From Desulfocurvibacter africanus subsp. africanus DSM 2603 (GTDB taxonomy: Bacteria; Desulfobacterota; Desulfovibrionia; Desulfovibrionales; Desulfovibrionaceae), in assembly GCF_000422545.1 (NCBI RefSeq), contig NZ_AULZ01000033.1:1-37836 (forward strand): 37,836 nucleotides of DNA, read 5' to 3'. Position numbers and translations under genes: made by a program. Of this stretch, positions 19,501 through 21,924 are shown in pieces; position 1 is the first letter of the stretch, and the number at the start of each line of letters is the position of its first letter. The notes under the pieces were generated by a model. The model did not search any database and was not told the DNA's origin. It worked only from the letters and a program-made list of their open reading frames with translations.

Positions 19501-21924
19501 TTAACGATAGCGTCTTCGGTAATTGCGTTGTTTAAACTTTTTTGCAATAGGAAGACCAAGTTCTTCATTCTTTCTTTCACGTCTATTGTTGTTATCCATA
19601 ATTCGCGCTTGTTGCAATGAGAATACATTAAACGCATTTAATAAAAACCTATTTTTAGCAAATTCATTAAAAGTCAATTCTGGATGACGTTTAAATTCTT
19701 GTTCTTCAGACTCCTTTAAATAAACAACGAAGTCATTTGCCCTAGCGATTCTATTCTTTAACGAGGTATCTCCAACGTCAGCATAGATAGACTTAACTAA
19801 TTCAAAATCATGTATAGGCGTATCAATTGAGACAAGATCTAAGTATGCGAACTGATGACAAAGATCTGTAAGGTAGAAGATGCCGCAATGAGTAATTTTT
19901 GCATAAGAAGCTTTCTCAATACTCGATTTTGAAAGGTTATCAAACTCGATAAGGTTATAACTAGCCATCCTAATAAGACAATCAGAAATGACTCGGCGCG
20001 TAATGAGAGCTGATTCGGCTACCGAAAACAATTCGTTGATTGATATATAGCCCCTGCCAATCTTGTTTTGTGAGTATCTTTTTTCATAAAGATAACTTAG
20101 CAGTCTTAAAATATTACTATGGGAATCTGATATAGAGGGGTCAAAATCATAAACGTTTAAAATATTACTTCTATCTTGATCATAATACCTGCGATCTCCC
20201 AAGAGAACCGATTTTATCATCTGATGAAAGGCAATCTGATACGCTCCTTGTATTCTTTTCTTATGAAGAACTTCGGTTATATTAGTATGTCCAGAAATGA
20301 TAAAGTTTGTAAACATACGCAAAGCTTCACGCATGTTGCCAACAGAAATGTTATTTATAAAATTTATAAGCTTTTCTGATTGTTTATTCTTACTAGTGAA
20401 CGATTCCTTAAGAATACTAAAATAATCTATTACATCATCTAGCTTATCTTTAGGCATCGTATGGATAATATAATTATAGTCCCCGCTACGCAAAAAATCT
20501 ATAGCAAAGTTCAATCTCTTAAGTATAAGGTTTATAAAGTTTGGAGAAGAAATATGAAACTTGGGAACGTTGAATGCATCAAACACTCCCTCTCTGGTTG
20601 AAGTGAGAAATGTATTCTCGCGCATAGAGACTAATACTATCGCCTTAAAGAAGCTTGATAAATGCGATGAGTATAGAAAAATGTGTTCTTGAAGTTCTGT
20701 TGAATGTTGATCTATGTTGTCAAATACAACTGAAATCGTATAGCCATGCTTTTTAAGCATGTTAAATACATTTCCAAAATAATCTTTTAAAGCATGCTTA
20801 TCATCTGGTATTTTTGGGAGTATGAATAACTCATTTAGTTTTTTGCTATAGTCTTGTTCCCATTTCTTGTATATGTTATCAAATATAAAAGCTTCAACTT
20901 CTGCTCCACTTGGTACATTAGTCCTAAAATCCATATAAAACCATAAAAACTTTTCATACCCGGAAAGGATAAATCGATAATAACGATGTATAAAAGTAGA
21001 TTTTCCAGCCCCAACACCACCCAATAAGACAACTATGCCACCTTGCGATGCTGGGCTTTTGCTATATGCTACAGAGTTGAAGAAGCCTTCTCTGCCCTCT
21101 GGACAGTCAGCGTCCATAATAGCATATTGCTCAGCAAAGTGCGGCAGCTTGTCTCTGAAATAGCTATCGATATTTTTTTGAGTATGTCGCGTGCGCTCTT
21201 CTATATAACATTCTTTTAAAATTTCTGCACGTGCCTCATCAATCATCTCATTAAATGCAAAATCAGCAATAGGCTGAATATAAGTATAAAGCTGATTCCT
21301 TAACCAAGCTTCATCTGGGTTATGTAACAGATCTATCACCTTTTGAAACTTAAGATCAGATTTACCTTTTTCTAAATATTCACCAAGAAGACCATTTATT
21401 ATTGAATCTTTTGAGAGCAGATTCCAAAATAAATTAAAATTATCTATAATATCTCTCAATGAGTTAAATACTATACAATCTCCATCTATCCAAGGCCTTC
21501 CAACAGAAATTGCAGAAAATATTACATACTGCTTGCCATTAGTAACACAACCGAATTTGCATCCAATATCGTCACAATAAGATCTAGCTTGGCGAATAGC
21601 TTTAATTAAATTTTTTACTGATGATATACTTGCTGATATTTTATATCTTCTAGAATTGAACGAGATCGGAACTTCAAAATAATCACCAGTTTTTTTAGCT
21701 TCAATTATAATCCTGGAAACACCATCAGCATGAATCCTATAATCAATAAACCCACTTTCATTGTGTTCTTCTCTTGAAATGTCATCCTCTTTCCAGCCCA
21801 AGCATTCTTTGAGAACCGAATCAATTAGCTTAATGCGTGTATCAGCTTCGTTAAAATCAACATCTTTATAATGATCGAAAATCCGCTGTATTCTGCTATA
21901 CGCTTCGTCGGGATGAGTTAGCAT
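19501..21924 (-). CDS. PD-(D/E)XK nuclease domain fused to P-loop NTPase, putative phage-defence protein
   Basis: An 807-residue protein, strongly AT-rich against the GC-rich surroundings, which suggests recent transfer. Residues 20-130 resemble the N-terminal nuclease domain of type I restriction HsdR subunits: TRIKLIDSVLKE helix, Asp61, Glu75-Ala-Lys77 (IIIEAKK) and Gln112-x3-Tyr116 (RQARSY). A helical spacer follows. The P-loop domain has Walker A GGVGAGKST (302-310), Walker B SVVFDNID (Asp402, Asp405) and Arg435 in LVSMREN as a possible sensor. Residues 550-807 are helical without a recognised domain and end in a basic tail (QRNYRRRYR). GGAG lies five bases before the ATG. No methylase, specificity subunit or helicase motifs are present, so this is not a standard restriction system. 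The domain reading is good; the defence role is inferred. Confidence 0.8.
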   Translation of the reverse strand: MLTHPDEAYSRIQRIFDHYKDVDFNEADTRIKLIDSVLKECLGWKEDDISREEHNESGFIDYRIHADGVSRIIIEAKKTGDYFEVPISFNSRRYKISASISSVKNLIKAIRQARSYCDDIGCKFGCVTNGKQYVIFSAISVGRPWIDGDCIVFNSLRDIIDNFNLFWNLLSKDSIINGLLGEYLEKGKSDLKFQKVIDLLHNPDEAWLRNQLYTYIQPIADFAFNEMIDEARAEILKECYIEERTRHTQKNIDSYFRDKLPHFAEQYAIMDADCPEGREGFFNSVAYSKSPASQGGIVVLLGGVGAGKSTFIHRYYRFILSGYEKFLWFYMDFRTNVPSGAEVEAFIFDNIYKKWEQDYSKKLNELFILPKIPDDKHALKDYFGNVFNMLKKHGYTISVVFDNIDQHSTELQEHIFLYSSHLSSFFKAIVLVSMRENTFLTSTREGVFDAFNVPKFHISSPNFINLILKRLNFAIDFLRSGDYNYIIHTMPKDKLDDVIDYFSILKESFTSKNKQSEKLINFINNISVGNMREALRMFTNFIISGHTNITEVLHKKRIQGAYQIAFHQMIKSVLLGDRRYYDQDRSNILNVYDFDPSISDSHSNILRLLSYLYEKRYSQNKIGRGYISINELFSVAESALITRRVISDCLIRMASYNLIEFDNLSKSSIEKASYAKITHCGIFYLTDLCHQFAYLDLVSIDTPIHDFELVKSIYADVGDTSLKNRIARANDFVVYLKESEEQEFKRHPELTFNEFAKNRFLLNAFNVFSLQQARIMDNNNRRERKNEELGLPIAKKFKQRNYRRRYR

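What the first reader, a model, noticed from the sequence alone, without database searches (positions are those of the whole stretch)
19501..21924. Lone AT-rich nuclease-NTPase gene, candidate single-gene defence system
An HsdR-type nuclease domain (Asp61, Glu75-x-Lys77, Gln112-x3-Tyr116) is fused to a P-loop domain (GGVGAGKST, FDNID) and an unassigned 250-residue helical tail, with no modification or specificity gene. The composition contrasts sharply with both flanks. The architecture is reminiscent of nuclease-STAND defence proteins such as Avs, but the size and tail do not match one I can name. It is the best candidate here for an undescribed system.
Basis: partly seen in the sequence, partly recalled or inferred. 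Interest (0 to 1): 0.75.

Follow-up and report, generated by a model that had tools for sequence, protein, structure and literature searches.

The report
Lone DNA-cutting gene, probable phage defence
This is a single, probably recently acquired bacterial gene that joins a DNA-cutting enzyme to a DNA-loading ATPase; relatives travel on prophages and plasmids, so it is probably a one-gene defence against phages or other invading DNA, but this has not been tested.

Summary
In detail: an intact 807-codon ORF at 19501-21924 (-), 34% G+C in 61% G+C flanks, every motif at the stated residue. It belongs to a coherent family. In 39 intact full-length sequences the nuclease residues (D61, E75, K77, Q112, Y116), Walker A, D402-N403-x-D405 and R532 are invariant, and gene G+C is below flank G+C in 39/39. 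The nuclease is HsdR-type. The ATPase models as an ORC/Cdc6-TnsC AAA+ module, Z up to 15.8. The 'unassigned tail' is AAA+ lid, winged helix and unmatched helices. Curated libraries name nothing above cut-off in the window protein. Relatives are lone genes on plasmids and in prophages; two E. coli subfamilies, 47% identical, sit beside DUF977 at a prophage cargo hotspot. At least 8 of 25 loci have a defence-type gene within 3.3 kb, with a weak control. Best reading: a mobile one-gene anti-phage or anti-plasmid nuclease; trigger, target and cutting are inferred. A new variant of the known ORC/Cdc6-plus-nuclease theme, not shown to be an Avs.

The parts
19501..21924 (-). whole gene, 807 aa: HsdR-type nuclease, ORC/Cdc6-like AAA+ ATPase, winged helix, helical tail
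   Evidence: ORF and translation; family alignments; conservation in 39 sequences
21370..21924 (-). nuclease domain, residues 1-185; D61, E75-x-K77, Q112-x3-Y116, N129-G130
   Evidence: HSDR_N_2 matches 12 of 15 members at E<=0.01; profile hits HsdR 3h1t at E 0.0025; N-terminus shared with proteins of HsdR length; secondary structure of the model fits PD-(D/E)XK; residues 39/39
20245..21114 (-). AAA+ ATPase core and lid, about residues 271-560
   Evidence: Foldseek: Cdc6 1fnn E 1.3e-6; VIA-align Z up to 15.8 to a human ORC chain (7cte_D) and about 13.5 to TnsC
20995..21021 (-). Walker A, GGVGAGKST, residues 302-310
   Evidence: sequence; G302, G305, G307, K308 in 39/39
20710..20724 (-). Walker B-like FDNID, residues 401-405; Asn where AAA+ proteins usually have the catalytic Glu (recalled)
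   Evidence: sequence; D402, N403, D405 in 39/39
20329..20340 (-). sensor-2-like GNMR, residues 529-532
   Evidence: R532 in 39/39; likeness to the Cdc6/Orc GDxR motif is recalled
19849..20127 (-). winged-helix domain, about residues 600-692
   Evidence: model of residues 588-807 has pLDDT 87.1; winged-helix proteins fill the VIA list, best Z 7.5, a middling value; ORC and Cdc6 matches extend to residues 665-696
19504..19848 (-). C-terminal helical tail, residues 693-807, ending in a basic stretch
   Evidence: models; no match that stands out

Best explanation
It is a mobile, single-gene anti-phage or anti-plasmid defence protein. Strongly indicated: the gene was acquired horizontally, its nuclease and ATP-binding residues are invariant across the family, close relatives evolve under purifying selection, and relatives move as lone cargo on prophages and plasmids. 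Inferred: the ORC/Cdc6-like ATPase with its winged helix binds ATP and assembles on DNA, as ORC, TnsC and BrxC do; a cue of invasion (a phage protein, a DNA structure such as a replication intermediate, or a modified base) releases the HsdR-type nuclease at the N-terminus; the nuclease cuts invader DNA, or the cell's own DNA in an abortive response. With no methyltransferase partner seen, self would be spared by the trigger rather than by methylation. The Asn in Walker B suggests slow, switch-like hydrolysis rather than a processive motor. I put about 0.8 on defence against invading DNA and about 0.5 on this mechanism; the figure given is for the whole.
For: Invariant nuclease and P-loop residues in 39/39 chosen intact sequences. 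dN/dS 0.056, 0.096 and 0.127 for three of nine pairs of relatives; a fourth with dS 2.9 gave 0.176; five had saturated dS. Gene G+C below flank G+C in 39/39, median gap 0.12. Sporadic: clear matches in 3 of 149 relatives and matches in 6 of 395 genomes of the phylum, both counting the window's own genome; class labels change 13 times on the tree (least 5, shuffled mean 19.5). Mobile: 30 plasmid records; 5 resolvases and 5 phage integrases among 96 neighbour ORFs of 25 loci. E. coli: 7 of 5426 genomes carry subfamily 1, between DUF977 and hokD in all 5 inspected; 8 of 5426 carry subfamily 2, between DUF1367 and DUF977 on the opposite strand in all 4 inspected. In other prophages matches to the DUF977-hokD interval cover other genes: FRG, DUF4209, HAD plus NUDIX, QueH, KilA-N. 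Defence neighbours: HsdR 55 nt away in L022; SIR2-HerA, PDC-S06, MzaE, Old/AriA-like, Ppl-like and HNH in seven further loci. ORC/Cdc6-TnsC fold.
Against: No functional test. The window copy lies among housekeeping genes, and so do some relatives (histidinol dehydrogenase, NnrS and cytochrome bd genes occur among the neighbours). The control for defence neighbours is weak: 81 ORFs from 16 stretches of the window's relatives, not matched to the loci's taxa or ORF length limits, matched 48 PADLOC families against 386; one protein can match about 100 families, and the control too holds a type IV restriction match at 2.5e-101. Several plasmid copies have only transposon and ordinary genes nearby (for example). 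Lone position fits any autonomous cargo gene. No match in 50,697 phage records with three queries, although prophage contigs carry it. The features listed lie under the match; I did not open those records.
Confidence: 0.6

Rival explanations
1. An Avs- or NLR-like abortive-infection sensor: the C-terminal winged helix and helical tail recognise a phage protein, the NTPase oligomerises as STAND proteins do, and the nuclease destroys DNA without choosing it.
For: NOD2 and CED-4 also appear in Foldseek; weak NACHT and nSTAND5 matches; Arg at the end of the fourth strand (R435, 37/39) resembles the STAND sensor Arg (recalled).
Against: No Avs model matched; ORC/Cdc6 and TnsC fit best; no long repeat sensor in the model; the C-terminus resembles DNA-binding folds, at middling Z.
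Confidence: 0.2
2. A modification-dependent (type IV) restriction enzyme: the protein reads modified phage bases and cuts, like McrBC in one chain.
For: No methyltransferase partner seen; one member is annotated 'Predicted type IV restriction endonuclease'; weak mREase_II matches in 2 of 15 members, best 0.0039; AAA+ plus PD-(D/E)XK is the McrBC recipe (recalled).
Against: No recognised base-reading domain among the families matched by 15 members; the ATPase is of another clade than McrB (recalled).
Confidence: 0.15
3. A transposon gene: a TnsA-like nuclease fused to a TnsC-like ATPase, working with a transposase.
For: TnsC structures match at Z about 13.5; one of 15 members hits the TnsA N-terminal model at 4.6e-4.
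Against: No recurrent transposase partner: among the 25 commonest families of 96 neighbours the recombinases are serine resolvases and phage integrases (rarer families were not shown); in E. coli the gene stands alone between phage genes; no convincing end repeats beside the window copy.
Confidence: 0.04
4. A prophage or plasmid housekeeping factor (replication or maintenance) that is not defensive.
For: ORC/Cdc6 fold; in E. coli it lies beside phage replication genes.
Against: Nuclease residues invariant; only 7 and 8 of 5426 E. coli genomes carry it; of 20 sampled records whose match lists both DUF977 and hokD, 19 lack it; no match in 50,697 phage records.
Confidence: 0.08

Closest known systems
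BrxC and DUF499 ATPases of BREX and BREX-related systems (PMC12839542, passages)
   Same: ORC/Cdc6-clade AAA+ ATPase followed by a winged helix, in phage defence
   Different: BrxC has 1200-1300 residues and works in multi-gene systems; here 807 aa, one gene, with its own HsdR-type nuclease
Orc/CDC6 plus REase plus wHTH conflict systems and CR-effectors (PMC10853773, passages)
   Same: the same three kinds of domain, in single or several polypeptides, in mobile neighbourhoods
   Different: in the passages read, the REase is of other families or C-terminal (CR-effectors), often with HerA/FtsK; here it is HsdR-type and N-terminal, with no HerA in the gene
HsdR of type I restriction (3h1t)
   Same: N-terminal nuclease domain with D, E-x-K and Q-x3-Y
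   Different: no SF2 helicase found, no HsdM or HsdS beside the window copy
Avs (nuclease-STAND) proteins (recalled)
   Same: nuclease fused to a STAND/ORC-branch NTPase, single gene
   Different: no model match; ORC-like ATPase; winged helix instead of a long repeat sensor
TnsA-TnsC of Tn7
   Same: restriction-like nuclease working with an ORC-branch ATPase
   Different: no transposase partner seen; one chain; prophage and plasmid cargo contexts
DS-41 of DefensePredictor (NF053860)
   Same: one member's P-loop region matches weakly, 16.6 bits
   Different: far below the 370-bit equivalog cut-off; the model has 448 positions
DrmMI (DISARM) in PADLOC-DB
   Same: 3 of 15 members match, best 6.8e-6; in the window protein 10.6 bits over residues 7-138, the nuclease part
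   Different: the match covers 137 of 1347 model positions and none of the ATPase

Membership tests
Avs | match to a curated Avs model | tested here: not met
   no Avs model in PADLOC-DB 2.0.0 for the window protein at E<=1 or 15 members at E<=0.01; that the library holds Avs models is recalled
Avs | STAND NTPase domain above the curated cut-off | tested here: not met
   nSTAND5 18 bits (cut-off 34), NACHT 16 bits (cut-off 26.7) for the window protein
Avs | binds a phage protein and then cuts DNA | not testable with these tools
   needs biochemistry
HsdR-type PD-(D/E)XK nuclease | D, E-x-K and Q-x3-Y in the expected order and elements | tested here: met
   39/39; strands and helix in place in the model
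HsdR-type PD-(D/E)XK nuclease | profile similarity to HsdR | tested here: met
   HSDR_N_2 in 12 of 15 members at E<=0.01; 3h1t E 0.0025; the window protein alone is below the Pfam cut-off, 16.9 against 25 bits
type I restriction system | SF2 helicase in the same chain, with HsdM and HsdS | tested here: not met
   no helicase family among matches; no HsdM or HsdS among 10 neighbouring ORFs
ORC/Cdc6-clade AAA+ | fold | tested here: met
   Cdc6 and ORC lead the lists
ORC/Cdc6-clade AAA+ | clade hallmarks: helical insert after strand 2, arginine finger | tested here: inconclusive
   a 27-residue helix follows strand 2; R435, R470 and R532 are conserved but were not assigned roles by a test
ORC/Cdc6-clade AAA+ | ATP-dependent oligomer on DNA | not testable with these tools
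   needs biochemistry
KAP NTPases | match to KAP_NTPase | tested here: inconclusive
   3 of 15 members match at E<=0.01, best 1e-6, cut-off not shown; the window protein does not at E<=1
BREX | PglZ, BrxX and other core genes beside it | tested here: not met
   no such family among 10 neighbouring ORFs of the window copy
DS-41 | equivalog cut-off of NF053860 | tested here: not met
   16.6 against 370 bits in one member; no match in the window protein at E<=1
Tn7-like TnsA/TnsC | transposase partner | tested here: inconclusive
   no transposase family among the 25 commonest of 117 families matched by 96 neighbours; the rest were not shown
anti-phage defence system | protects cells from phage | not testable with these tools
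   no assay

The most novel reading that the evidence does not exclude
A self-contained, methylation-independent restriction machine: a replication-initiator-like ATPase loads on the origin or replication intermediates of invading phages and plasmids and delivers its own nuclease there, so that one gene does what BREX or type I systems do with several.
Probability: 0.25. Interest if true: 0.75.

Novelty: new variant of a known kind. Interest (0 to 1): 0.5.

Why it matters
If right, it adds a one-gene family to the ORC/Cdc6-plus-nuclease branch of bacterial immunity and shows how little such a system may need. Natural copies in E. coli prophages make it testable at once, and a single-gene nuclease that spares self without methylation raises the question of how it tells self from invader. 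It also points to the DUF977-hokD interval of lambdoid prophages as a place to look for further defence genes. The theme itself is known, so the interest is moderate.

Tried and rejected
Curated libraries: PADLOC-DB, NCBIfam and Pfam gave nothing above a curated cut-off for the window protein (PADLOC shows no cut-offs, its only match was DrmMI at 10.6 bits). PHROGs was not searched. DS-41: followed up and rejected as the same system. Avs: rejected as membership, kept as a rival for how it works. Transposition: considered because of TnsC and TnsA matches; no partner found. Mobile-element ends at the window copy: no convincing repeats. Promoter and terminator scans are near chance (15 promoter-like sites against 11.2 expected, 1 terminator-like against 1.5). 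Empty site: not testable, since in the relatives where both flanking genes were found (G024, G057, G120) they lie far apart or on different contigs. First genome scan with the single protein found no relative. The whole-model viral fold search gave weak replication-factor-C-like matches. Literature searches by accession and for the architecture or context showed no description in their listings. Supplements could not be read, so the family may be among the predictions, or even the validated nuclease or P-loop systems, of DefensePredictor; against the latter, E. coli copies hit no DS-named NCBIfam model at E<=0.1. The window's organism was not identified.

Full report
Observation. The ORF at 19501-21924 on the minus strand is intact, 807 aa, and has every motif at the stated residue. 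Its G+C is 34% against 61% in the flanks; 1-kb windows within it are 32-35%. Ten neighbouring ORFs were scanned with Pfam: 7 gave ordinary metabolic, transport or DUF4019 matches and 3 none. The genome holds one copy.

What it is made of. Single-protein scans give only sub-threshold matches, among them HSDR_N_2, AAA_22, nSTAND5 and NACHT. The family gives more. HSDR_N_2 matches 12 of 15 members at E<=0.01; a profile of the first 200 residues hits an HsdR structure at E 0.0025 around the E-x-K and Q-x3-Y motifs; and the pattern scan also fetched proteins that share only this N-terminus, many of them 775-890 aa. I take these to be HsdR from length and the shared domain; I did not scan them for helicases. 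Other weak matches among the 15 members: DrmMI in 3, best 6.8e-6; KAP_NTPase in 3, best 1e-6.

The ATPase. An AlphaFold2 model from 25 sequences has mean pLDDT 79.6. Foldseek's best matches are Cdc6 and ORC, E 1.3e-6, with NOD2 at rank 6 and CED-4 at rank 9. VIA-align gives Z 15.8 (rmsd 4.8, 280 aligned) for a human ORC chain over residues 211-589 and 13.6 (rmsd 4.2, 273 aligned) for TnsC over 211-666. Walker B carries Asn403, where AAA+ proteins usually have the catalytic Glu (recalled), in 39 of 39. The separate model of 588-807 has pLDDT 87.1; winged-helix regulators fill the VIA list with best Z 7.5, a middling value, and Foldseek has no match at E<=0.001. The last helices have no match that stands out.

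The family. tblastn found matches in 30 of 72,556 plasmid records and in none of 50,697 phage records. The genome scan with a five-sequence alignment found 97 relatives and kept 80; 23 (L027-L049) match over most of the protein, one of them split into two ORFs and one at a contig end. Of 149 relatives searched, 6 match at E<=0.001; 3 are clear, the window's genome included, and 3 are short and weak. In 395 genomes of the phylum, 6 match at E<=1e-20, the window's included, one of them with an internal stop. Over 39 full-length sequences chosen by me (broken, cut and duplicate copies left out), D61, E75, K77, Q112, Y116, the Walker A residues, D402, N403, D405, R470, R532 and C239 are invariant, and gene G+C is below flank G+C in 39 of 39, by 0.03 to 0.35. 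For pairs of relatives dN/dS is 0.056, 0.096 and 0.127; a fourth pair with dS 2.9 gave 0.176 and five had saturated dS; the window gene itself was not in these pairs. The tree mixes classes: 13 label changes, least 5, shuffled mean 19.5; long branches make some joins unsure. The window and L021 (G068, 51% identical) are sisters, and by eye the ORFs beside G068's gene are other ones.

Where relatives live. In the 13 plasmid-collection regions I opened, of 30 records, the gene has no constant partner and often lies beside transposases or integrases; two have restriction genes near, others only ordinary or transposon genes (for example). Among 96 neighbour ORFs of 25 loci, Pfam counts 5 resolvases and 5 phage integrases, but also housekeeping genes. 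PADLOC finds defence-type genes within about 3.3 kb in at least 8 of 25 loci: HsdR 55 nt upstream in L022, and SIR2 plus HerA (L037), PDC-S06 (L046), MzaE (L047), AriA- or Old-like (L044), Old-like plus a cytosine methyltransferase (L032), Ppl-like (L031) and HNH (L034; a second L034 protein gave no match). The control, 81 ORFs from 16 stretches of the window's relatives, matched 48 families against 386, but families are not independent, taxa and length limits are not matched, and the control includes a type IV restriction match. I call this suggestive, not decisive.

The E. coli prophages are the stronger evidence. Subfamily 1 is in 7 of 5426 genomes; the 5 I inspected all have it between DUF977 and hokD, and the 3 seen with long flanks are prophages at three host sites. 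Subfamily 2 is in 8 of 5426; the 4 inspected have it between DUF1367 and DUF977, on the opposite strand. The two are 47% identical; a third query had no match in E. coli. A search with the interval and its flanks found some match in 4773 of 5426 genomes but a place covering at least 80% of it in only 7. Of 40 records sampled down the ranking, 20 list both DUF977 and hokD under the match: 1 with our gene, the other 19 with FRG, DUF4209, HAD plus NUDIX, QueH, KilA-N, other or unnamed genes; further rows show a kinase with a phosphatase, a KwaB-like protein and a 'phage exclusion protein'. I did not open these records. That FRG and DUF4209 are defence-related is recalled. Broken copies occur: L019 and L025 carry insertion elements, and L047, L113 and L151 are split.

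How it most likely works. ORC, TnsC and BrxC are ATPases that assemble on DNA; [quoted passage not shown] The phosphorothioate survey describes mobile systems that combine Orc/CDC6 ATPases, REases and wHTH domains (passages of PMC10853773). By analogy this protein assembles on DNA with ATP and fires its nuclease on a cue that marks invaders. Each of these steps is inferred.

Novelty. The theme is known; this arrangement (N-terminal HsdR-type nuclease, ORC-like ATPase, winged helix, helical tail, one gene) was not found in the passages read, as a named family in PADLOC-DB, NCBIfam or Pfam for the window protein, or by accession in the paper library. DefensePredictor (abstract, passages and legends of PMC13092281) reports 42 validated systems, 13 of 31 of one group with PD-(D/E)XK and 7 with P-loop domains, and nearly 3,000 predicted clusters; its supplements were not readable, so this family may be among them. 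The functional screen of PMC9519451 (passages) likewise reports 11 systems with DNA-binding or cutting parts that I could not compare one by one.

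Noticed in passing
L023:13870-18508 and the matching interval of other E. coli prophages: Matches to the DUF977-hokD interval cover different genes in different prophages: FRG, DUF4209, HAD plus NUDIX, QueH, KilA-N, methyltransferases and unnamed genes.
   Followed up: partly
window:21208-21210 (residue C239) and the same column in 38 relatives: A single Cys in the linker between nuclease and ATPase is invariant in 39 of 39 sequences; its role is unknown.
   Followed up: no
L011:7974-10847: A Rhodobacteraceae member carries a C-terminal cold-shock domain, as if a nucleic-acid binder had been added to the tail.
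   Followed up: no
L022:5270-13794: The gene follows an HsdR gene by 55 nt on the same strand, with two ORFs upstream that look like HsdM and HsdS (read by eye; only HsdR was scanned).
   Followed up: partly
L037:6323-9768: A SIR2 plus HerA gene pair lies 209 nt upstream of a family member.
   Followed up: no
L031:7136-9835: A protein with a PHP-like start (read by eye) and ATPase segments, partly Ppl-like, lies 148 nt upstream of a member.
   Followed up: no
L017: This Klebsiella plasmid copy lies among phage-type genes (ribonuclease HI, phage adenine methyltransferase, exonuclease), perhaps a phage-plasmid.
   Followed up: no
L018 (LR134124.1): The record is labelled a plasmid but carries rpsU, dnaG and rpoD beside phage terminase and capsid genes, so this Klebsiella aerogenes copy may be a chromosomal prophage remnant.
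   Followed up: no
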